Virus record (IMG/VR): IMGVR_UViG_3300043449_000807
Span: 1-35,695 of that record
Length of the DNA: 35,695 bases
Source of the DNA: a virus
Reading direction: 5' to 3' (one strand)
Of this stretch, positions 129 to 29,296 are shown piece by piece. The position numbers and the translations under genes were made by a program. The notes under the pieces are model-generated. The model searched no databases and had not been told where the DNA came from. It saw only the letters and a program-made list of their open reading frames with translations. The first letter of the stretch is position 1. Each line of letters begins with the position of its first letter.

Positions 129-365
129 ATGTCTCCCTACATCAAATCCAATCAAGTGATTTCCGACATGGCCCTGGCGTTAGCCTGGATAAAGGATTTG
201 TCGGACATACGCCACGTCCGCCGCGAGCTTTCTTGCGCCGGCTTCGACGAAGATCACATCGACCAATACGCAGAATGCGCCGTCGTCTACGCGCAGCATA
301 AGCGCGCCTTGTTCGGTGGACCCAATCAAATGACCGCGCCGGAGGGCCAGCATGAAGATCAGTGA
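129..365 (+). CDS. Small hypothetical phage protein
   Basis: A 78-residue frame starting with ATG. It has helical N-terminal and central parts, with an acidic GFDEDHIDQY stretch near residues 38-47 and a polar tail. It overlaps the following exonuclease gene by 14 bases (that ATG is at 352, this TGA at 363-365), which suggests translational coupling in the recombination operon. The ribosome site is weak. I do not recognise a family or a function. An antisense frame (180-437) looks like a shadow. Confidence 0.6.
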   Translation: MSPYIKSNQVISDMALALAWIKDLSDIRHVRRELSCAGFDEDHIDQYAECAVVYAQHKRALFGGPNQMTAPEGQHEDQ

Positions 366-1011
366 CGCGCCGATGGTATCAGAAGGTGATACAGGCTTAC
401 AGCGCAATGACGGTTGGTATGCTGACCGTTGCGCCAAAGTTACGGCAAGCCCGATCCTGAAAGTCTATAAGAAGCTTAAATCAGGCGGCTACAGCAGCGA
501 GCGCGAAACTTACTTTTTCCAAGTGCTAGGCGAGACGCTGACAGGCGTTCCGGCGTCCGGTTTCAAGTCTGCCGCCATGCAGCGCGGGATCGACAAGGAA
601 GCCGAGGCACGCGAGGCGTATCAGCGCAAGACGAATTACCCCGTTTACGAAGCGCCATTTATCGCTCATCCGCGCATCGAGCGCGCCGGCGCATCGCCTG
701 ACGGTTTTGTGGGCGAGGACGGGCTTGTCGAGATCAAATGCCCCAACAGCGCGACGACCGCAAAAGTCCTGCTCAACGACTATCTGGACGAGACATACGC
801 CGCTCAGATGCAATGGCAGATGGCTTGCACAGGCCGCCAATGGTGCGACTACGCGGTCTATGACGACCGTATGCCGGAGCATTTGCGCCTCTACGTCCGT
901 CGCATCAATCGCGATGACGCGCTGATCGCTGACGTGGAGAAGGAAGTTATCAAGTTTCTTGAAGAGATTGACGCGGCGGTTGCTGCGCTCACCAAAAAAT
1001 ACGCAGCTTAA
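352..1011 (+). CDS. YqaJ-like phage exonuclease (lambda-exonuclease superfamily)
   Basis: This 219-residue protein has the hallmarks of the YqaJ viral recombinase family (PD-(D/E)XK nuclease fold). It has an N-terminal helix with RCAKVTAS (26-33), an acidic helix MQRGIDKEAEAREAY (76-90), the metal-binding core with SPDG (D117) and EIK (E127, K129), and a following helix AAQMQWQMACTG (150-161). Family members digest one strand of duplex DNA from ends and work with a single-strand annealing protein in phage recombination and concatemer processing. Length is normal for the family. The SSB-like gene 12 bases downstream supports this role. No RecT or Beta annealing protein is visible in the window; it may lie to the left. 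Confidence 0.88.
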   Translation: MKISDAPMVSEGDTGLQRNDGWYADRCAKVTASPILKVYKKLKSGGYSSERETYFFQVLGETLTGVPASGFKSAAMQRGIDKEAEAREAYQRKTNYPVYEAPFIAHPRIERAGASPDGFVGEDGLVEIKCPNSATTAKVLLNDYLDETYAAQMQWQMACTGRQWCDYAVYDDRMPEHLRLYVRRINRDDALIADVEKEVIKFLEEIDAAVAALTKKYAA

Positions 1012-1023
1012 TAGGAGAAGAAA

Positions 1024-1653
1024 ATGAAATTACCTAAGCCCGGCGAAGGTGGTGGCAATATGGAGCCGGTTCCGGCCGGTACTTATGTCGGCATTTGCTA
1101 TAGATTTGTCGATCTAGGCACCCAGAAAAGCGAATATCAAGGGCAGATCAAGCACACACGTAAGGTGATGATCTCTTGGATTTTGCCTGACGAGCTTATG
1201 TCGGACGGACGCCCGTTCTCCGCGCACAAGCAATACGGCTGGAGTATGCACGAAAAAGCGACCCTGCGTCACGATTTGGAAAGCTGGCGCGGGAAGGCGT
1301 TTACGCCGGAGGATTTTGGCAAGTTTGATACCAAGAACCTGCTTGGCCAGCCGTGTATGCTGACCATTACGCAAGACACGAAGCCGGACGGCCGCGTCTT
1401 CTCTAATGTCTCATCAGTCGGAAAGCCTATGAAGGGCCTTGTCATTCCGAAGCTGGCAGAGCCGACTGTTTACCTGTCGCTGGAGCCGGATGCTTTTGAC
1501 CAAGCGGTCTATGACAGCCTTGGCAACGGCCTCAAAGAGCGCATCGCGCAGTCGCCGGAGTTTAAGGAGCTTAGCGCGAAGCATCTGCACGCCGCTTATA
1601 CCGATGATGGTCTGAGCGCTGGCGCTGATCCGTCCGACGACATTCCGTTTTAG
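1024..1653 (+). CDS. SSB-like phage DNA-binding protein with DDIPF tip
   Basis: A 209-residue protein with a good ribosome site (AGGAG before ATG 1024). The body looks beta-rich, with conserved-looking PVPAGTYVG (residues 16-24) and a core near 85-150 that includes LLGQPCMLTITQ. The C terminus is acidic and ends in DPSDDIPF, which closely matches the terminal tip of bacterial SSB (DDDIPF). In SSB that tip docks repair and replication partners. Its place directly after a YqaJ exonuclease is typical of phage single-strand-binding proteins. The role is inferred from the tip and the neighbours; I do not see a textbook OB-fold signature. It probably coats single-stranded DNA and recruits host proteins. 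Confidence 0.65.
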   Translation: MKLPKPGEGGGNMEPVPAGTYVGICYRFVDLGTQKSEYQGQIKHTRKVMISWILPDELMSDGRPFSAHKQYGWSMHEKATLRHDLESWRGKAFTPEDFGKFDTKNLLGQPCMLTITQDTKPDGRVFSNVSSVGKPMKGLVIPKLAEPTVYLSLEPDAFDQAVYDSLGNGLKERIAQSPEFKELSAKHLHAAYTDDGLSAGADPSDDIPF

Positions 1654-1665
1654 TATTTACTCGGC

Positions 1666-1760
1666 ATCGCAACGCCGCGCTACGCCACGCAGCGCTCCAC
1701 ATTGCATCGCTACGCCCCACCCCGATCCGCCCCGCCACGCTTCGCAACGCAACGCTGCGA
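1666..1760 (+). repeat. Degenerate NNCGC pentanucleotide tract
   Basis: Read in steps of five from 1666, the gap between the SSB-like gene and the next gene resolves into 19 successive pentamers. Fourteen have the form NNCGC (for example ATCGC, AACGC, TACGC, CACGC, TTCGC). The exceptions are at 1696-1705, 1716-1725 and 1756-1760. The tract fills almost the whole gap. The top strand is strongly C-rich and G occurs almost only within the CGC core. Its role is unknown; a protein-binding array, a replication element or an unstructured mRNA spacer are all possible. Confidence 0.75.
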
Positions 1761-1777
1761 TTAAATATGGAGCTTAA

Positions 1778-2227
1778 ATGGCCAAAGCAGCAATAGCCGC
1801 CAGCCTTGTCGATGTCAGGAACATCGCTGCGCACAAATGCGTGCGGCTGGAAATACACGTCCCGGCAGAACAAGCCGGGGCGGTTCTTGAAGCATTTGGC
1901 TGGCCTACGGCCGTCGATCCAGTTCCCGTCGCCATCGCGAGATTGAACCATGTCCATGAGACTGAGACACACCACGCCGACGAGCCTGAGAAGCCACGTC
2001 GCACATGGCCCGAGGTGCCGCCAACTACGCGCGCTGCCATGCTCTGCAACGAAACTGCCTTCCTTGCCTTTCTTAAAGTCAAGACCAAAGAGGAAGCCGC
2101 TGACAAGCTACGCCGTCATTGCATGGTGAAAAGCCGCAGCGAGTTCAACACTAATGAAACCGCGCGCATGAAGTTCGAAATGGTTGAGCGCGATTTTCAG
2201 CGCTGGCGTGAGGAGAAGCACTTCTGA
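1778..2227 (+). CDS. Conserved hypothetical phage protein
   Basis: A 149-residue protein. ATG 1778 is preceded by GGAG at 1769-1772. The N-terminal third (CVRLEIHVPAEQAG, then FGWPTAVDPVPVAIARL) resembles a family I associate with early regions of alphaproteobacterial phages and prophages near recombination genes, but I know no function. The C-terminal half (residues 85-149) is helical and basic, with a KSRSEF motif and an ending rich in Arg, Trp and Glu, as in small nucleic-acid-associated proteins. It ends overlapping the CTG start of the HNH gene. The role is unassigned. Confidence 0.75.
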   Translation: MAKAAIAASLVDVRNIAAHKCVRLEIHVPAEQAGAVLEAFGWPTAVDPVPVAIARLNHVHETETHHADEPEKPRRTWPEVPPTTRAAMLCNETAFLAFLKVKTKEEAADKLRRHCMVKSRSEFNTNETARMKFEMVERDFQRWREEKHF

Positions 2228-2959: not shown

Positions 2960-3831
2960 CAGAGTGGATCGACCACGAGGGAAAGCATTTGCCGGCAAAT
3001 ACAGCCAAGCGCTATTCCGTGTCGCTGAAACAGGTTGAGCCTTTTCTGGCCAAGCTGAATATTGCGGCGATCAACGGCAAGGTCATTGGCGATTTTGCAA
3101 AAACGCGACGCAAAGCCGGCGCTTCCGCTGCCACGGTCCGCCGCGACCTGACCGCCATATCAAAGGTGCTGGATTACGCGATCTCGGAGAACTGGCGCGA
3201 GGACAACCCTACGTTGAGCCGCCGCCGTCTCATCAAGGAGCGGCGCGATCCGATCACCCTTCCTGTCATCGAAGATGTGGAGACAATGATCGCCGCCTCT
3301 TCGCCTGCCTTTGGTGCATTGATCCGGGCCGCATGGCTGACCGGATGCCGCCAGGACGAGCTAGTCACCGCCGTATGGCGCGGATACGACCCCGTTCGGA
3401 AGACGCTCCGCGTGGTCGGCAAGGGCAATAAGGCTCGCGTAATCTCCCTGCGCCCGATCCCGTCGAAAGACGCCGTGGACTTTATCGAAAGCCTGCCGAG
3501 GACGTTTGGGTCGGACCTGATCTTCTGCAAGCCGGATGGTGCGCCGTTCTCTCAGGCCGCTTCCGACTTCACCCACATCCGCCGGGGCGTCATTGCCAAG
3601 GCCAAGAAGGAGGGCCGCCGGTTTGATCGCTTCCGCTATCACGACCTGCGCCACCTGTTCGCCGTCGAGGCGCTCAAGGAGGGGATGAACATTTACGACC
3701 TCCAGCAGCACATGGGCCATTCTTCCGTGAAGGTGACGGAAATTTACCTCGCCCATCTGACGCCGGAAGAGAAGGCTGCGGCCAAGGGTGGCTCGGCTGC
3801 CTATACCCAAAACTATACCCAAACGGCCTAG
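2758..3831 (+). CDS. int: Tyrosine-family site-specific integrase
   Basis: A 357-residue tyrosine recombinase. ATG 2758 is chosen because GGGAAG sits just upstream and the protein begins with the usual short N-terminal strand region (IIRRGDTYWIRAYVKGK). A core-binding domain spans about residues 60-150. The catalytic domain shows R198 (TGCRQDE), H295 and R298 (YHDLRH), H321 (MGHSS) and the nucleophile Y330 (IYLAHL). It catalyses phage integration into and excision from the host chromosome. The gene reads toward the tRNA-Ser segment 75 bases downstream, which is its likely attachment core. The C-terminal codons contain two direct repeats (3801-3823) that may double as arm-type binding sites. 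Confidence 0.95.
   Translation: MSDNPDRNIIRRGDTYWIRAYVKGKLLQRSLRTSDVKVARSQRDKMLKEASDWAWRGDRVVTWLDAVTEWIDHEGKHLPANTAKRYSVSLKQVEPFLAKLNIAAINGKVIGDFAKTRRKAGASAATVRRDLTAISKVLDYAISENWREDNPTLSRRRLIKERRDPITLPVIEDVETMIAASSPAFGALIRAAWLTGCRQDELVTAVWRGYDPVRKTLRVVGKGNKARVISLRPIPSKDAVDFIESLPRTFGSDLIFCKPDGAPFSQAASDFTHIRRGVIAKAKKEGRRFDRFRYHDLRHLFAVEALKEGMNIYDLQQHMGHSSVKVTEIYLAHLTPEEKAAAKGGSAAYTQNYTQTA
3801..3823 (+). repeat. Direct repeat CTATACCCAAA x2, candidate integrase arm sites
   Basis: CTATACCCAAA occurs at 3801-3811 and 3813-3823 (12-base period) in the last codons of the integrase gene. A third TACCCAAA lies at 4083-4090 on the other side of the tRNA core. Short direct repeats flanking a core fit arm-type integrase sites. 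The first two also encode YTQ-type codons, so chance or coding constraint is possible. Confidence 0.35.
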
Positions 3832-3906
3832 TTCGGCGGTTTGCAAAACAGAAGCATCAATCTGGACAAGGAGTTAGAGCTATATGCAGATTGATTTTAA
3901 ATCGCA

Positions 3907-3964
3907 CTTGAAAACCGCCGTGGGGGCAACTCCACCGTGGGTTCGAATCCCACCTCTTCCGCCA
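3907..3964 (+). other. attP: attP core candidate: 3' part of tRNA-Ser(TGA)
   Basis: This segment is the 3' portion of a class II tRNA. It has an anticodon loop CTTGAAA (3907-3913, anticodon TGA), the stem start ACCGC, a long variable arm, the T arm GTGGG-TTCGAAT-CCCAC, the acceptor strand CTCTTCC, a discriminator G and an encoded CCA (3962-3964). The 5' half does not precede it: the bases before 3907 do not form the anticodon stem or D arm, so this is not a complete tRNA gene. It lies 75 bases after the integrase stop with phage genes on both sides, so it is best read as the phage attachment core that would rebuild the host tRNA-Ser gene on integration. Confidence 0.8.
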
Positions 3965-4060
3965 TTAACTTACGGAAATATATACGGATACAGCGACGGA
4001 GCAAGGAGAACAAAACGCTTCGCCGCCGGCGCAAAAAACGAACAAAACGCGCCCGATAAC

Positions 4061-4075
4061 GTATACAGTATATAC
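4061..4075. promoter_or_regulatory. Inverted repeat GTATA-N5-TATAC, possible operator or Xis/Int site
   Basis: A small inverted repeat sits in the AT-rich part of the attachment region: GTATA at 4061-4065 and TATAC at 4071-4075. It lies between the tRNA core and the dCTP deaminase leader and could bind excisionase or a repressor, or contain a -10 element. No convincing -35 box is visible. The remainder of 3832-4137 holds no gene that I can support. Confidence 0.3.
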
Positions 4076-4085
4076 AAAATCGTAC

Positions 4086-4134
4086 CCAAAAATCGGGCCG
4101 GTTTTGGCTTCCGCTCTCCCATTTGGGAGGGCGG
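4086..4134 (+). promoter_or_regulatory. Tandem hairpin leader burying the dCTP deaminase ribosome site
   Basis: Two adjacent hairpins precede ATG 4138. The first pairs CCAAAA (4086-4091) with TTTTGG (4102-4107). The second pairs CCGCTCTCCC (4111-4120) with GGGAGGGCGG (4125-4134) around the loop ATTT: ten pairs including one G-U. The Shine-Dalgarno GGGAGG lies wholly inside the 3' arm. No T-run follows on either strand, so this is not an intrinsic terminator. It probably limits translation of the downstream gene. Confidence 0.6.
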
Positions 4135-4137
4135 TCG

Positions 4138-4626
4138 ATGAGCCAGCTATCCGCCCAATCCATCCGCAAGCTCTGCCTTGCCGACCCGCCTCTCATCCAC
4201 CCGTTCATCGGAACGAAGGTGGTCGTAAACGGCAAAAGCTATGGCTTGAGCGCAGCCAGCTATGACGTGCGGATCGCCCACAAGCTGACCCTGATGTGCG
4301 GTCAGGCGGCGCTGGCGCATACGGTCGAGGACTTCTGGCTCCCTGACAACGTGGTCGGCTATGTCGTGGACAAGTCCACATGGGCGCGTCGCCACGTCAC
4401 GGCGTTCAACACGCTGCTCGACCCTGGCTGGCACGGCAACCTGACGCTGGAACTGGTCAACCTTGGCCATACGCCGGTAGACATCGCGGCCGGCGATCCA
4501 ATCGTTCAGATCGCCTTCCATTGGCTCGATGAGCCGACTGACCGCGCTTACGACGGAAAATATCAGGCGCAGACAAAAGCCGCTCACGGGCCTCGTCATC
4601 AGCACGAAGACGGGTCGTGGAGCTAA
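4138..4626 (+). CDS. dcd: dCTP deaminase (dUTPase-like trimer family)
   Basis: A 162-residue protein of the dCTP deaminase/dUTPase family. Motifs in order: SYDVRI (41-46), VDKSTWARR (77-85, the phosphate-binding Ser/Arg region), LDPGWHGNLTLEL (94-106) with the likely catalytic E105, AAGDPIVQIAFH (117-128), and the C-terminal nucleotide-covering YDGKYQ (138-143). It should convert dCTP to dUTP (some relatives continue to dUMP), feeding dTMP synthesis and shaping nucleotide pools during phage replication. It is slightly shorter than the bacterial enzymes. The in-frame TTG at 4123 falls in the hairpin; ATG 4138 with GGGAGG 7 bases upstream is the better start. It begins the second + strand gene cluster. 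Confidence 0.88.
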   Translation: MSQLSAQSIRKLCLADPPLIHPFIGTKVVVNGKSYGLSAASYDVRIAHKLTLMCGQAALAHTVEDFWLPDNVVGYVVDKSTWARRHVTAFNTLLDPGWHGNLTLELVNLGHTPVDIAAGDPIVQIAFHWLDEPTDRAYDGKYQAQTKAAHGPRHQHEDGSWS

Positions 4627-4629
4627 GCC

Positions 4630-4860
4630 ATGCCCTCACCCAATCCCAAACGACAAGCGGAGGTTCGCCGGGCAGCAGCCGGCGTGCCGACTTTCGACAC
4701 CATCGCGGGCGTCGAGGCAGTCACGCACATGGTCGTGGCGGCTGACGGCACACGTCCCAAAGGCGACGAAGTTTACACCGGCCGCCGGCTGACACCGCTC
4801 AGCCTGCCGCGTCTGAAATTCATGGAGAGAGACATTGATGACAACCGAAATGGTCTTTGA
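4630..4860 (+). CDS. Small hypothetical phage protein
   Basis: A 76-residue protein starting at ATG 4630, with GGAG 7 bases upstream inside the end of the dCTP deaminase gene, so the two are probably coupled. The N terminus is basic (PNPKRQAEVRR) and the middle contains VTHMVVAADGTRPKG. There is no membrane segment. It ends inside the next small gene. I do not recognise a family. Confidence 0.6.
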   Translation: MPSPNPKRQAEVRRAAAGVPTFDTIAGVEAVTHMVVAADGTRPKGDEVYTGRRLTPLSLPRLKFMERDIDDNRNGL

Positions 4861-4939
4861 CGCGGGGCTTTACCTCGGCTTTTACGCTTTCGGACTGGCC
4901 TCCGGCGTCTTCCTGAGTTGGATCGAAGCGCGTCGATGA
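4838..4939 (+). CDS. 33-residue single-span membrane protein
   Basis: ATG 4838 follows GGAGAGAG, a fair ribosome site. The product has an acidic start (MTTEMVFDAG), one hydrophobic span at about residues 10-27 with aromatic and small residues, then a basic end EARR, predicting N-out/C-in topology. It overlaps the previous gene by 23 bases and the next by an ATGA junction. Tiny membrane proteins of this kind are common in phage early regions; the function is unknown. Confidence 0.5.
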   Translation: MTTEMVFDAGLYLGFYAFGLASGVFLSWIEARR

Positions 4940-5052
4940 TCCGCCTCCTGACATCCCTTTTTCGCTCTCGCGAGAAATCGCTGACCTGGGCAAGTCGCCA
5001 GCCAAAGGTCCGCGTCCGTATTCAGATCGGCGGCACGGAGATTACAAAATGA
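4936..5052 (+). CDS. 38-residue basic peptide, hypothetical
   Basis: Starts with the ATG of an ATGATGA-type junction with the preceding gene and ends in another ATGA overlap with the next gene. The product is strongly basic (LTSLFRSREK, then RQPKVRVRIQIGG) and would be cytoplasmic or nucleic-acid associated. It is supported mainly by the chain of stop-start overlaps on both sides; there is no recognisable family. Confidence 0.45.
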   Translation: MIRLLTSLFRSREKSLTWASRQPKVRVRIQIGGTEITK

Positions 5053-5405
5053 TGAAGCTCGTAGACACCACATACGGCCTCTCAGACGATGCGCTTGATG
5101 CTCGCGCTGGAGCCATCGCCATCAACGCATACATGGCCCAGCTTCGCGCATTGAACCGCCATGAGCTTCCGATCCTCGACGTGGACTACCGGAAGATAAA
5201 ATGGCTCAAGCACATCCTGACAAGCGCTAATGCCGTTGATGCGCCGTCCGCTGACGGAGCGCTGTTCTCTCCCGTTCAGGCGCGCGTGTCGAAGAAGTTC
5301 ACGCAGATTGAAGCCGGCCTAGAGGCCGCGCTGGACCTGATTGACGAGCCGGTCGAGGAAGTCGTCAAGGCGACCGTAGCCAAGAAGCAGGCTGTCGCAG
5401 CGTGA
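5049..5405 (+). CDS. Hypothetical phage protein
   Basis: A 118-residue soluble, largely helical protein, with a DVDYRKIKWLKHIL segment (49-62) and an Ala/Val/Lys-rich C terminus. It begins ATGATG; the second ATG (5052) is equally possible. It is linked by ATGA to the gene before and by GTGA to the gene after, so it is part of a tightly packed operon. I do not recognise the family. Confidence 0.65.
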   Translation: MMKLVDTTYGLSDDALDARAGAIAINAYMAQLRALNRHELPILDVDYRKIKWLKHILTSANAVDAPSADGALFSPVQARVSKKFTQIEAGLEAALDLIDEPVEEVVKATVAKKQAVAA

Positions 5406-9614: not shown

Positions 9615-11567
9615 TTACGACTTGACCTTTTGCTCCAAGCCCTCAATGCGGCGCATCGCCTCTTGAAGCGCACCCAGAGCTTTCAGGTAAAGGATTGAGT
9701 ATTTAACTTCTTTGGTCGTTTCGCCCGTCGCGCGGCGAACGATCTCCTTCTGACCGGCCTCATTAACAATCTCGATCTCTTCAAAGTCAGGCGTTTCTGA
9801 CACGAGGTTTGGAGATGTCTTTTCTAATTCCTGGGCAATAACGCCAAGCTGGACAAGGCCGCTTTCATCAGACTTAAAGCGAAATTTGCACAGATTGACC
9901 GCCTTGATGTCTTCCCACTGTGAAGAGGCAGGCCCGATTATGTCTTTTAATTTGGCGTCAGAAATAGACCCAAATACATTGTTTGCATTTCGAGTGTCGC
10001 CGTTGGCCGTCACTCTAAAGACGTTTGTGCCAGAGGAGTTTAGCCAATAAGCCAAATATGTGTTTGTGTCCGTGGTGCCAGCTTTTGCCTGGATCGTGAT
10101 TGAACCCGTTGTCGATGACGAGTTTTCATAGTGAACAAGAGAAGAATTGGCCTTTGCATCTTTGATGGTGAGCGTTTTAGCAATCGCGGTCGGAGACTCG
10201 CCAATCACCTGCTGGTAGTTGCCATCGACCCAATCGAGAACCGTCGCGGGGTCGCTGTCAATTATGTTTGCGCCGCCGATGCTAAACGATCCTCTCACAT
10301 AAGCATACCCAACCGTAGACGCTAGAATTATCGCCTTTTCAAATCCAGACCCTCTGACCTGATCGCCAATAATATAGACGTTATCGGCCTTTCTTATGTC
10401 TATTGCTCTATGAGTGGTTCCGGGGGCGGATGCCTGGGTGTAGAAATTGCCAGTGAAGACCGCAACAGTCGTCGTTGTGCTGCTACCTCCTGGTATCAAC
10501 AAAACGTCCGCATAGGTTGACCCAGCGAAATTGTTGCGCTCAAAGAAATTGTTTTCAAAGCGGATATTGGTTCCGTCAACGACTTTGACGCCGTTATACT
10601 GCGCGCCTTGAATGGCGTTGCCGGTCAAATTGACAGTAATTATCTCTGATGCGCCGCCATCAAGGACAATGCACTCTTCTCCGGCGTCATCTATGCGATT
10701 TCTTGCGATTTCGCAGGCGGTGGCGGCGGACCACCAAATATTGTTTTTAAGGGCGTCGTGAATATAATTGTCCGCAATCGTGAACGCCCATGTTTCATAT
10801 CCGTAGATATTATATCCAAACCCATAAATCTGACATTGCTGGATGTAGCAATTGCGGATCGTTCCAGTGAAGTAAACTCCCTTTGTCGTATTGGTCGATC
10901 CGTCGCCTTTAATGGACAGGTGTTCCAGCATGACGTTGGAATATTCTCTGTCAACGCCGCCCATCTGGACAGCGACAGCCAAGCCAGCGGATTGAAGCAT
11001 TGAGCTAGACTTTGACGCGCCGATAAGCCGGACGCCTTCTTTGACGTAGATCGTCGAAAGATGCTTATAGACGCCAGCAGGAACGAATACGTCGTTGCTT
11101 ACAAAGTCCACTTTTGAAGCGATGACTGTTTGAACTTTGACGGTAGCAACATCAATGGCCGCTTGTATCGCGGACGTATCGTCATTTGATCCGTCGCCCT
11201 TCGCGCCAAACCATTTTACGTTCAGCGGTCCAGTGACAATGCGCTTCCACGCCGTCGTTCCGGTTCCGCCGCCGGGGACAATGGTTAGGGCTCCGTCATC
11301 TGTGTAGGAGCCGCCTGTGACGCCATAAAACTCGCCGCCGCCGCCATCGCCATTGCTGTAGTAGCCGCTGACAACAGCCACCTGATTGGCTACGGGCGTA
11401 TTCGTGCGCAGGGCGGCTATGTTAGTTGCGCGGATAATACCCGTGGTGGTGGGAACAACGCCTGTCGCTGTAGCAGCCGCAGCTTCCGCAAGAAGCCGAT
11501 CCGAACGCGCAGCAGCCGAGTCGCTGACCTGGACGTTTGTGACGTTATTAGAGACAACAATGGTCAT
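9615..11567 (-). CDS. Tail spike: pectate-lyase beta-helix with S74 self-cleaving chaperone
   Basis: A 650-residue receptor-binding protein. Residues 1-60 are Ala/Thr-rich and probably attach to the tail. FGAKGDGSNDDTSAIQAAID (120-139) is the signature start of the pectate-lyase-3/right-handed beta-helix fold, which continues to about 440. Residues 535-650 are a Peptidase_S74 intramolecular chaperone: SDAKLK (S536, K541) at its start, LGVIAQELE (574-582), and a C-terminal coiled coil YLKALGALQEAMRRIEGLEQ. The chaperone trimerises the spike and is then released by autocleavage, most likely just before S536. The spike probably binds or degrades surface polysaccharide of the host. Start ATG 11567 overlaps the upstream stop (ATGA). 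Confidence 0.88.
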   Translation of the reverse strand: MTIVVSNNVTNVQVSDSAAARSDRLLAEAAAATATGVVPTTTGIIRATNIAALRTNTPVANQVAVVSGYYSNGDGGGGEFYGVTGGSYTDDGALTIVPGGGTGTTAWKRIVTGPLNVKWFGAKGDGSNDDTSAIQAAIDVATVKVQTVIASKVDFVSNDVFVPAGVYKHLSTIYVKEGVRLIGASKSSSMLQSAGLAVAVQMGGVDREYSNVMLEHLSIKGDGSTNTTKGVYFTGTIRNCYIQQCQIYGFGYNIYGYETWAFTIADNYIHDALKNNIWWSAATACEIARNRIDDAGEECIVLDGGASEIITVNLTGNAIQGAQYNGVKVVDGTNIRFENNFFERNNFAGSTYADVLLIPGGSSTTTTVAVFTGNFYTQASAPGTTHRAIDIRKADNVYIIGDQVRGSGFEKAIILASTVGYAYVRGSFSIGGANIIDSDPATVLDWVDGNYQQVIGESPTAIAKTLTIKDAKANSSLVHYENSSSTTGSITIQAKAGTTDTNTYLAYWLNSSGTNVFRVTANGDTRNANNVFGSISDAKLKDIIGPASSQWEDIKAVNLCKFRFKSDESGLVQLGVIAQELEKTSPNLVSETPDFEEIEIVNEAGQKEIVRRATGETTKEVKYSILYLKALGALQEAMRRIEGLEQKVKS

Positions 11568-12004
11568 GGGCGCACCTTGCGGATCGGAATGATTACTTGC
11601 GTGAGGGTGTCGTTGCTGGCGTCAGTCGTCTGCAAAAGCAGGCGCGTGTAGTAAGAGCGCGTCGTGTCAAACGGAACGTCAGGACTTTGAATGTCAGGCG
11701 TTTGAACCGCCGTGTAGCTGTCGTTGATCGTGACTACAACGACGCCTTGCGCTCTCAATGTCGCGTCAACAGTCCCGACCGCCCCCGTGACTGCTGTGCT
11801 AGTCGTTGGTGTGACAATCTTGGCGCTAAACGTATAAGCGCTCATGTTCTGAGGCGTCTGCGTCGTATTGTTCAATATTTCTGATGGGCCGGCGTTTGTG
11901 AACAGGAAGCTAAAAACCCAGTCGTCGCCAATGAAGCCGTTGTATAGCGGCGCAAGCTGCGGCTCGGAACACCAAGCCGCAGTAATCTGTGATGTCACAG
12001 CCAT
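11564..12004 (-). CDS. Phage tail-associated protein, unknown
   Basis: 146 residues from ATG 12004 (AGGAAGACAAATC upstream); the longer frame to 12145 gives Arg/His-rich shadow sequence. The protein is rich in Thr, Val and Ala with many predicted strands (GDDWVFSFLFTN, AKIVTPTTSTAVTG, ATLRAQGVVVVTIND) and ends IPIRKVRP. It lies between two receptor-type proteins and probably forms a beta-sandwich baseplate, adaptor or spike-connecting protein. No named family is recognised. Confidence 0.65.
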   Translation of the reverse strand: MAVTSQITAAWCSEPQLAPLYNGFIGDDWVFSFLFTNAGPSEILNNTTQTPQNMSAYTFSAKIVTPTTSTAVTGAVGTVDATLRAQGVVVVTINDSYTAVQTPDIQSPDVPFDTTRSYYTRLLLQTTDASNDTLTQVIIPIRKVRP

Positions 12005-12018
12005 GATTTGTCTTCCTA

Positions 12019-13488
12019 TCAGGCAGAGCCAATAAAGAGCGGGCCATCTACGGCACATGCAGCGATGACCGTCCCGTCGTAATTGATGCCGATGTCTGTC
12101 CAGAGATATGTGCTGCCGAGCCCATCGACGTTTACGTTTGTCCACGTCAGGCCGAAGTCAGCCGAGAGGAACAGGTAGCCGCCGTATGTCGCAGCAGCCA
12201 TGACGCGGCCGTTTCCTGACACGGCGCAGGTCAGATATGGCGAGCCAGCGCCATACTTCGTCCAAGTCGAGCCGCCGTCACGCGACACCTGCCACCAGGT
12301 TGTCGTGCTTTGCGATGTCGCGATGACGTATGTGCCAGACCAATCGCAGGCGACTTTCGAGAACTGACTGGCGAACGAATTGGCGCAGACTTCCCAATGC
12401 GCGCCGCCGTTGAGGGAGCGATACATCTTGTCGAGCGACCGACCGGCGAACATGACACTGTTGTTGAACGAGGCGCAGCAGCAGGTAAAAAACTCATACC
12501 AGGGCAGAAGCCCAGTATCCTTGCTTTCCCAGCTTATGCCGTTGTTGGCCGAGAAATAGATCAGGTTGCCCGGATTGGCTGTCAGGATGGTCCTGGAGCC
12601 GTCCTTGGCGATCTCAACGCCGTTCGTCTGGTTTGTCGTCCAAGGACGCGGGCTGGCGACCCAACTGGCTCCAGCGTCAAACGACGAGTAAGTGTATTGC
12701 CTGTCGAGCGGATAGGCGGCCATAAGGTTGCCAGCCGCGTTCATTGTAACGTTGACCCAATTATCTGCTGACACAGGCATTGTCAGCCAGTTGTTGCCCG
12801 TGTCAGGCGACAGATAAACTTTGGAGTCGCCGCCGAACAACGAGCCGCCGCGTCCTATCAAGATCAAATTGCCAGCGGCATTCAGATCGACAACGCGGGC
12901 GTTCAGTATGCTTTTCCGCCATGTGTAGACGAGCGGCGGAAACGGATCGGGCGGCGTCGGCTGGACTCCGCAATGGTCTTCCCCCGGCGTCGGGTTATAT
13001 TCGTATGAACCGGCCGTGCCGGCATTAAATCTCGATGGCCGTATCCGACTGCAAAACATCGGGCTTGGCACTTGATCCTGCGCGCCGGCAAAGTGCGGCA
13101 AGATGTGAGCCGGATTAGCAAAGCCGACTGCGGCAGCAGTTGACGAGCCTGCACCTATGAAGCGAGCTTTGACCGGGCTGACAGCGATTGCTGTGCTTCT
13201 GCCGGAAGCAAGTCCGTAGCCGTATCTGTTCGGGTCAACCGTTCCTGCTACCGTTGATGTGCCGGCGGACGATCCAATGCCTTGTCTTGCCGTGACGCCA
13301 ACAGCAGCAGCGGTTGACGTTCCTGACGCTGACCCAGCGCCAGACGGCGATCCGCTGTTTGTCGTCGTCCCGAGTGGCTGAAAACCAATAGGCGCAGAAG
13401 CTATTGCGCCGCCTGATTGCGCACTTGTCGTGACGGCTACGGCTTCTCCGTCGCCATAGGCATATTCGCCATAAGCGCCGTCAGCCAT
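12019..13488 (-). CDS. Asp-box beta-propeller tail protein
   Basis: A 489-residue protein. Residues 1-125 are low-complexity Gly/Ala/Ser/Thr with repeated xSTAxAVG-like units (near 57-64, 76-81, 97-103, 115-122). Residues about 190-489 carry six Asp-box (BNR) motifs, SxDxGxxW, at 227, 269, 313, 358, 402 and 442. The 40-45 residue spacing marks the blades of a beta-propeller, as in sialidases and Ycf48-like proteins. It most likely contacts a host surface glycan. I see no catalytic sialidase set (no clear FRIP and Tyr/Glu pair), so binding is more likely than cleavage. ATG 13488 has GAGG upstream. Confidence 0.82.
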   Translation of the reverse strand: MADGAYGEYAYGDGEAVAVTTSAQSGGAIASAPIGFQPLGTTTNSGSPSGAGSASGTSTAAAVGVTARQGIGSSAGTSTVAGTVDPNRYGYGLASGRSTAIAVSPVKARFIGAGSSTAAAVGFANPAHILPHFAGAQDQVPSPMFCSRIRPSRFNAGTAGSYEYNPTPGEDHCGVQPTPPDPFPPLVYTWRKSILNARVVDLNAAGNLILIGRGGSLFGGDSKVYLSPDTGNNWLTMPVSADNWVNVTMNAAGNLMAAYPLDRQYTYSSFDAGASWVASPRPWTTNQTNGVEIAKDGSRTILTANPGNLIYFSANNGISWESKDTGLLPWYEFFTCCCASFNNSVMFAGRSLDKMYRSLNGGAHWEVCANSFASQFSKVACDWSGTYVIATSQSTTTWWQVSRDGGSTWTKYGAGSPYLTCAVSGNGRVMAAATYGGYLFLSADFGLTWTNVNVDGLGSTYLWTDIGINYDGTVIAACAVDGPLFIGSA

Positions 13489-28438: not shown

Positions 28439-29296
28439 TTAGAACGCCGAACCGTCGTGGTTCACGAGGACAACACCCTTCGTCTGGAGCAGCTTCGAGC
28501 CCATGAAGACCGTGCTGCGAGCGAAGTAGTAATCGTCTTCCTCGTTGTAACCGGCCTTGACATCCATCTCGCCCGTGTTGACCGCATGGCCAATCGCAGA
28601 CTTGTGGAAGGCGTAGCACTTCTCGGTCGAAGTGCCGGCGCCGGACAGGCGGGGATGCCAAATCCAGTTGAAGCCAGCCCAACGCTCGATGCGCTTGCTG
28701 TTGATGCCGGTGGACGGGCCATTCTCAAGGAACGGCAGGTTCATATCCACCCAATCGCGCGAACCAAATTCTTTGGTCTGCATCAGGTAGGCACGGAACG
28801 CCGGCGAGGCGACGAAAAACATGTTGTCGATCTCATCGACCGGCACTTCGTTCTTGCCGAGGATGGCCATAGCCTTCATGACAAGGGCCAGCGACGCCGT
28901 AGCGGAAGTCGTTCCAGCGTTCGTGGTCGTGTTCGCCAGTTCGCCCAGGATGTCCTGGTCGATCTTGCGGTTCATGACCTTGATCGTGGTTTCCTGCATG
29001 ATCCGGCGGCCATCGCCCTGCGAGGCGAAGATGTTGAAGCCGGTGCGGCGAGGCTTATCGTGCCACTCAACCAGCGTCGCAGTGTACTGGTTCAGGTTGT
29101 CAGCGCGGCCCGGAATGAGGCCGTTGACGCCACGAGTGACCGCCGACGCATTGCCGCTGTCAGCGACAAGGAAGGTGGCCTGGTTGCCTTTAATGACCGC
29201 TTCCGTGGTGGCAGCGGTACGCAGAAGGGACTGGCCCTGTTCGAAGCCGGCAATGAACTCCTGCCGGTACTGTGTCTGGAATGCTGTATTAGCCAT
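28439..29296 (-). CDS. Major capsid protein
   Basis: 285 residues from ATG 29296 (AGAGGTG upstream); the longer frame to 29305 adds three residues without a better site. It has a helical N terminus (MANTAFQTQYRQEFIAGFEQ), a long central region with PRRTGFNIFASQGDGRRIMQ (85-105) and IDQDILGELANTTTNAG, then VASPAFRAYLMQTKEFGSRD and KLLQTKGVVLVNHDGSAF at the end. This pattern matches the phage capsid family found in Bcep22/P22-like podophages with the HK97 fold. It follows the scaffold gene and has its own leader RNA and terminators. It should build the icosahedral head around the scaffold. Confidence 0.85.
   Translation of the reverse strand: MANTAFQTQYRQEFIAGFEQGQSLLRTAATTEAVIKGNQATFLVADSGNASAVTRGVNGLIPGRADNLNQYTATLVEWHDKPRRTGFNIFASQGDGRRIMQETTIKVMNRKIDQDILGELANTTTNAGTTSATASLALVMKAMAILGKNEVPVDEIDNMFFVASPAFRAYLMQTKEFGSRDWVDMNLPFLENGPSTGINSKRIERWAGFNWIWHPRLSGAGTSTEKCYAFHKSAIGHAVNTGEMDVKAGYNEEDDYYFARSTVFMGSKLLQTKGVVLVNHDGSAF

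What the first reader, a model, noticed from the sequence alone, without database searches (positions are those of the whole stretch)
1666..1760. Tract of 19 degenerate NNCGC pentamers between SSB-like gene and next gene
Seen: reading in steps of five, 14 of 19 units are NNCGC, filling nearly the whole 124-base gap. The phase holds throughout with variable first two bases, which argues against simple slippage and for selection on a 5-base (half helical turn) spacing. G is nearly confined to the CGC core. Inference: candidate binding array for a phage recombination or replication protein, a replication origin element, or an mRNA spacer free of stable structure.
Basis: partly seen in the sequence, partly recalled or inferred. 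Interest (0 to 1): 0.7.

Follow-up and report, generated by a model that had tools for sequence, protein, structure and literature searches.

The report
Phage guide-RNA array lacking its partner
The odd five-letter repeat in this phage looks like a guide RNA of a newly described, CRISPR-related weapon that phages use on each other, with a different repeat core from the published one and with its protein partner missing from the sequence at hand.

Summary
The tract is real: 14 of 18 pentamers at 1666-1755 read NNCGC in one phase; no dinucleotide shuffle of the gap exceeded 9 (20,000 tried). It is not a local curiosity. A pattern scan filled its 120-stretch limit, and 92 of the 120 loci hold NN-diverse arrays. 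In 64 of the 92 the locus also encodes a ~196-aa protein with a RAMP (Cas7/Csm3) fold, homologous to phage SUSP1's gene at the Vipr position. VIPR systems (PMC13142463) use GGY/NN vrRNAs whose NNs pair with DNA by a one-base-skip code. One CGC guide here (L090) decodes to a related phage (L034) at 27 of 28 bases with wobble skips. A sister phage (L138) carries a full GG-type VIPR locus in the same gap; one of its guides fits the window's SSB-like gene at 16 of 18 bases. So the tract is best read as a CGC-core guide array. The window record encodes no Vipr and no target was found. Orphan guide or relic is undecided.

The parts
1666..1755 (+). CGC/NN guide-like array, 18 units (14 NNCGC; the others TCCAC, ATTGC, CCCAC, CCCGA), ending AACGC AACGC
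   Evidence: family statistics
1756..1777 (+). 3' flank of the array; holds GGAG, a likely ribosome-binding site of the next gene; candidate RNA tail (inferred)
   Evidence: Sequence; the fold pairs this flank with the imperfect middle units, but the whole fold is not better than shuffles (z -0.58)
1024..1653 (+). SSB-like gene, NGO0469 family (NF046043); left border of the gap
   Evidence: E 1.2e-60; phrog_862
1237..1263 (+). Site in the SSB-like gene that a guide of sister phage L138 fits (16 of 18 bases, skip base = third codon position)
1778..2227 (+). 149-aa gene of unknown function; right border of the gap and anchor for the sister phages
352..1011 (+). YqaJ/RecE-like exonuclease; syntenic anchor

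Best explanation
The tract is a guide-RNA array of the VIPR kind with a CGC core. The + strand transcript carries NN dinucleotides spaced by CGC. A RAMP protein (Vipr) coats the RNA and presents the NNs, which pair with two of every three bases of a double-stranded DNA target, skipping the third (usually wobble) base, and block that gene in a competing phage or prophage. Shown here by computation: the tract, its family, the family's association with a RAMP-fold Vipr homologue, one decoded cross-phage target of a CGC guide, and a VIPR locus in the same gap of a sister phage. Taken from the preprint: pairing, binding and repression, shown there for GGY-core systems. Inferred: that this tract is transcribed, processed and loaded, and that its Vipr comes from beyond the truncated record or from a co-resident phage. 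Split: about 0.85 that it is such a guide by origin, about 0.55 that it still works.
For: Phased tract far beyond chance. Same array type in 92 of 120 scan loci. Vipr-family protein in 64 of the 92 loci and 6 more by whole record, arrays on its strand 238 to 13; 0 of 11 loci fetched with the SSB-like protein have it. RAMP fold; SUSP1 homologue at 73 bits beside GGT arrays. L090 guide to L034: 27 of 28 bases with skip 1, 15-17 with skips 0, 2, 3, best of 2000 shuffles 22, wobble frame. Sister L138 has a full VIPR locus between the same two genes, and one of its guides fits the window at 16 of 18 bases (0 of 1000 shuffles). The + strand array RNA is open.
Against: The published core is GGY, not CGC. 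No Vipr in the record. No target for this guide in five IMG/VR patterns or 385 genomes. The general skip-1 excess is modest: 14 of 271 guides against 2-8 in eight shuffles, and one shuffle gave a single score of 10. 18 units is above the 9-16 reported. 22 of the 92 loci have no Vipr found. Nearest sister phages lack the tract, so its conservation in place cannot be shown. No expression data.
Confidence: 0.75

Rival explanations
1. Relic: the gap once held a whole CGC-type VIPR locus, as L138's gap holds a GG-type one; the protein genes were lost and one array is left with no present function.
For: No Vipr in the record; no target found; four of 18 units off the core; sister phages show gain and loss at the gap.
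Against: Core integrity 14/18 is within the family's range: 73 of 288 arrays are at or below it. Two of the four deviants are CAC units, a common accepted deviation. L029 has intact arrays with no Vipr found.
Confidence: 0.3
2. Binding array for a phage recombination or replication protein on single- or double-stranded DNA, or a replication origin element.
For: It lies between recombination and replication genes; 5-base phase.
Against: Absent from the same gap of L137, L139 and L140 with the same flanking genes; in 64 of 92 loci the arrays go with a RAMP protein instead; strand bias 238 to 13 fits RNA.
Confidence: 0.05
3. mRNA spacer or leader that keeps the ribosome-binding site of the 149-aa gene open or regulated.
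For: The array ends 20 bases before a start codon and is less folded than shuffles.
Against: A spacer needs no fixed 5-base phase; sister phages do without; the fold with the flank may even hide GGAG (not significant).
Confidence: 0.05
4. Plain slippage-born microsatellite.
For: Some scan loci hold low-diversity repeats, e.g. L003, L021, L097.
Against: NN positions are diverse while CGC is kept, in the window and in 92 loci.
Confidence: 0.02

Closest known systems
VIPR vrRNA (PMC13142463, bioRxiv 2026.04.26.720920; abstract and main text read, supplement not available)
   Same: Tandem pentamers of a fixed triplet and a variable NN; phage-borne; family arrays flank a ~20-kD RAMP-fold gene; one CGC guide obeys the one-base-skip reading with wobble skips.
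   Different: Core CGC instead of GGY; 18 units rather than 9-16; no Vipr in the record; 3' tail not shown. The main text allows 'a related consensus' (fig. S17), which I could not read.
Escherichia phage SUSP1 VIPR locus (KT454805)
   Same: Its 195-aa gene at 28474-29061 is a homologue of the CGC-array neighbours (73 bits) and is flanked by pentamer arrays. That this gene is the published Vipr is inferred from place and size.
   Different: GGT/NN arrays; unrelated phage.
CRISPR class 1 backbone RAMPs (type VII Cas7, Csm3) with crRNA
   Same: Fold of the array-adjacent protein; in both a RAMP coats a guide RNA (from the preprint).
   Different: Five-base units with gapped pairing instead of a continuous spacer; no CRISPR repeats or cas operon noted at these loci (not searched for).
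TRAP-binding leader RNAs (recalled, no call)
   Same: Fixed triplet plus variable dinucleotide at a 5-base step.
   Different: TRAP reads NAG triplets in host trp leaders; no TRAP-like protein was sought here.

Membership tests
VIPR vrRNA | Tandem pentamers: constant triplet alternating with hypervariable NN | tested here: met
VIPR vrRNA | Constant triplet is GGY | tested here: not met
   Core is CGC. 'Or a related consensus' in the main text; the supplement could not be read
VIPR vrRNA | 9-16 repeat units | tested here: inconclusive
   18 units with 14 perfect; the last two may be a constant end, as AACGC ends 138 of 287 arrays
VIPR vrRNA | Conserved, structured 3' tail | tested here: inconclusive
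   Array plus flank does not fold better than shuffles (z -0.58); no syntenic CGC array to compare
VIPR vrRNA | One-base-skip match to a DNA target | tested here: inconclusive
   Met by one CGC guide of the family (L090 to L034); no target for the window guide
VIPR vrRNA | Expressed as a small RNA bound to Vipr | not testable with these tools
   Needs RNA sequencing and pull-down
VIPR locus (complete system) | A vipr gene next to the array | tested here: not met
   None in the 35.7-kb record. Met for the array family in 64 of 92 loci and for sister phage L138
Vipr protein (neighbour of the family's arrays, not in the window) | RAMP fold, ~20 kD, homologous to the SUSP1 gene at the Vipr position | tested here: met
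Intergenic binding array or origin | Kept in place in relatives with the same flanking genes | tested here: not met
   Absent in L137, L139, L140; L138 has GG-type arrays and a Vipr gene instead

The most novel reading that the evidence does not exclude
Phages such as this one carry stand-alone CGC guide RNAs with no Vipr of their own and borrow the Vipr of a co-resident phage or prophage, so that guides travel apart from the protein; arrays and whole VIPR loci swap in and out of one gap between replication genes, and phages recode the matching codons of their own alleles (serine AGT to TCG in one case) so as to be spared.
Probability: 0.3. Interest if true: 0.85.

Novelty: new variant of a known kind. 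Interest (0 to 1): 0.72.

Why it matters
VIPR was described in 2026 from GGY-core guides, and the one-base-skip code was tested there on type II. This work finds a broad CGC-core class by DNA pattern alone, decodes one of its guides to a closely related phage (the guide's owner is recoded at that site), and places a guide array without a Vipr in a gap that holds a whole VIPR locus in a sister phage. If orphan guides work with a borrowed protein, guides could spread between phages like small plug-in weapons, a step on the road from phage conflict to CRISPR that can be tested directly.

Tried and rejected
Nearby DNA in INPHARED: no match for window 1024-2227. Vipr homologue of L004 by tblastn in INPHARED: no match. 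Host search: the 149-aa alignment found no relative in genome contigs; the integrase alignment found only 24-30% relatives. Target of the window guide: five skip-1 patterns in IMG/VR. Units 1-10 gave 0 stretches. Units 9-17 gave 2 copies of one intergenic sequence, 23 of 36 bases. Units 5-13 gave 0. Units 8-15 gave 6 and units 2-9 gave 8 stretches, in which only 2 to 7 of 16 bases outside the seed match, as by chance. Genomes of one class: 0 of 385 with up to 3 mismatches. SSB-like homologues as target: at most 18 of 32 bases, noise; I had hoped for this because a codon reading resembled their start. Literature: (bacteriophage, pentanucleotide repeats, intergenic) found the VIPR preprint; (CGCNN, NNCGC and AACGC-type strings, anywhere in a word) held 192 papers of which I saw the 25 listed, none on phage arrays by title; (VIPR + vrRNA) found that one preprint only. 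Pfam, PADLOC and NCBIfam have no model for the Vipr homologue. Rfam: no match in window, L100, L138, L004.

Dropped before counts: 28 of 120 loci by the NN-diversity filter (8 of those 28 also have a Vipr-family hit); L121-L124 (copies of the window); L141/L142 in the guide scans (fetched by the window's own pattern, they inflated); 13 of 284 guides as redundant or poor in NN types. Skip 3 covered 239 of 270 guides only (time). One search's output was cut, so I read part of its rows. The genome search missed a divergent Vipr-family hit that the local HMM found (L062), so its empty answers are weak.

Full report
OBSERVATION. The tract is as described. From 1666, 14 of 18 pentamers to 1755 are NNCGC, in a 124-base gap between two co-directional genes. 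In 20,000 dinucleotide-preserving shuffles the best phased count was 9. It is the only such tract found in the 35,695-base record.

NEIGHBOURS. Upstream are a YqaJ/RecE-like exonuclease (352-1011) and an SSB-like gene that NCBIfam calls an NGO0469-family phage replication initiation protein (1024-1653). Downstream are a 149-aa gene of unknown function and an HNH gene, then an integrase-like gene (named from sequence by recall). The record starts inside an open frame and ends inside an ORF that runs off the end.

FAMILY. With 21 fixed bases, chance would give well under one match (my estimate, taking roughly 40 Gb). In 92 of 120 loci the arrays have diverse NN (6 or more intact units, 5 or more NN types, entropy over 2 bits). 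Over 5032 units of these arrays, 4185 are NNCGC; the main deviations are CTC (291), CAC (253) and TGC (117); all 16 NN occur; 138 of 287 arrays end in AACGC and 111 are followed by AACG. The three loci laid out in full hold several arrays parted by near-constant spacers of 18-25 bases (L004, L015) or ~75 bases (L100). Arrays often begin a few bases after a stop codon and end just before the next gene's start region.

PARTNER. A family of ~196-aa proteins (phrog_4652, unknown) is encoded in 64 of the 92 loci, and in 6 more when whole records were searched: 70 of 92, counted by locus, some loci sharing a record. It is also in 8 of the 28 low-diversity loci. In the 64 loci, 238 arrays lie on its strand and 13 on the other. 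None of 11 loci fetched with the SSB-like protein has it. An AlphaFold2 model of the L004 protein from 31 sequences (pLDDT 92.9, pTM 0.86) matches type VII Cas7 and Csm3/Cmr RAMP subunits; all 50 listed rows are CRISPR type III or VII complexes or their subunits, best E 1.4e-7, TM about 0.5.

LITERATURE. The VIPR preprint PMC13142463 (abstract and main text read; supplement not available) describes phage systems of a ~20-kD RAMP protein, Vipr, and vrRNAs of 9-16 YNNGG units, read by non-contiguous pairing in which NN pairs and one target base is skipped. It says the seven types use GGY/NN 'or a related consensus'. The SUSP1 record shows a 195-aa gene between two long gaps with GGT-type arrays, and my HMM built on the CGC neighbours finds that protein at 73 bits. 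So the CGC arrays belong with VIPR-like loci.

CODE TEST. For 284 CGC arrays against 5.26 Mb (both strands) of held phage DNA with arrays masked, skip 1 gave the only score above 9: L090's array against L034. Counted by base it is 27 of 28 over 14 units; skips 0, 2 and 3 give 16, 15 and 17; the best of 2000 unit-order shuffles is 22. The skipped base is the third codon position of an SNF2-like gene of L034. L090 is nearly the same as L034 on both sides, but it differs at the target (22 of 28 bases) and carries its own array just downstream inside the same gene. The wider excess is modest: 14 of 271 guides score 8 or more with skip 1, against 4 and 2 for skips 0 and 2, 8 for reversed order, and 2-8 (mean 5) in eight shuffles, one of which held a score of 10. 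One strong case and a weak trend therefore carry the rule over to the CGC class.

THE GAP IN SISTER PHAGES. The 149-aa gene led to four contigs. L139/L140: 9 bases in the gap. L137: a small ORF. L138: the complete package, GG-type arrays at 3659-3826, a Vipr homologue at 3868-4659 (E 1.6e-18), more GG-type arrays at 4706-5055 and a 158-aa ORF, then the 149-aa gene. So this gap is a place where VIPR parts come and go, and the window has only a CGC array there. One of eight L138 guides fits the window's SSB-like gene at 1237-1263: 16 of 18 bases over nine units, seven units in a row, skip base at the third codon position. 0 of 1000 shuffles reach 16 in the whole window; 20 reach 15 (not corrected for eight guides). 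The sister L125 fits 15 and L137 14; L138's own gene reaches 13, in another frame. At the site L138 has serine TCG where the window has AGT. This is suggestive, not proof.

THE WINDOW GUIDE. Read 5' to 3' the NNs are AT AA CG TA CA AG TC AT AT TA CC CC TC CC CA TT, then AA AA. No Vipr is found in the record with filters off (best E 2.7) nor. No target was found. The array RNA alone is less folded than shuffles (195 of 200 shuffles fold at least as well), while the complement of array plus flank folds strongly (z -3.45), which suits a + strand RNA. Other records also hold arrays and no found Vipr: L029 (43 kb) has 17/17 and 18/19 arrays each followed by a terminator-like hairpin and T run.

VERDICT. 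By origin a CGC-core guide array of the VIPR kind, likely; still working, about an even bet. It works like a vrRNA; it is not filed as a GGY vrRNA because that core is not met, and not as a complete VIPR system because no Vipr is in the record.

Noticed in passing
L090:2222-2301 and L034 (+ strand) 3609-3703: In two near-identical phages a guide array lies inside an SNF2-like gene; L090's guide matches L034's allele just upstream of L034's own array at 27 of 28 bases, and L090's own allele is changed there. A clean pair for a duel experiment.
   Followed up: partly
L138:3659-5055 and window 1237-1263: A sister phage's GG-type guide seems aimed at the window's SSB-like gene; the sister's own serine codon is TCG where the window has AGT.
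   Followed up: partly
L029 (- strand) 375-459 and 948-1042: Two CGC arrays, each followed by a hairpin and T run like an intrinsic terminator, among other ORFs of a 43-kb record in which no Vipr was found: stand-alone guide genes.
   Followed up: partly
L100 (- strand) 10094-12658: 14 arrays parted by a conserved ~75-base spacer with a GCCAGCCCCGCGAGGGGCTGGC-type hairpin, perhaps a processing element; no Rfam match.
   Followed up: no
L004, L015 array spacers: Near-constant AT-rich spacers of 18-25 bases beginning AACG(A/T)AT or similar between arrays: possible processing site or tail.
   Followed up: no
window 1664-1777: Predicted pairing of the array's imperfect middle units with the flank that holds GGAG of the 149-aa gene; the whole fold is not better than shuffles.
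   Followed up: partly
window 3900-3963: Sequence like the 3' end of a tRNA gene just after the integrase-like gene, a likely attachment site (recalled pattern); ARAGORN finds no whole tRNA in the window.
   Followed up: no
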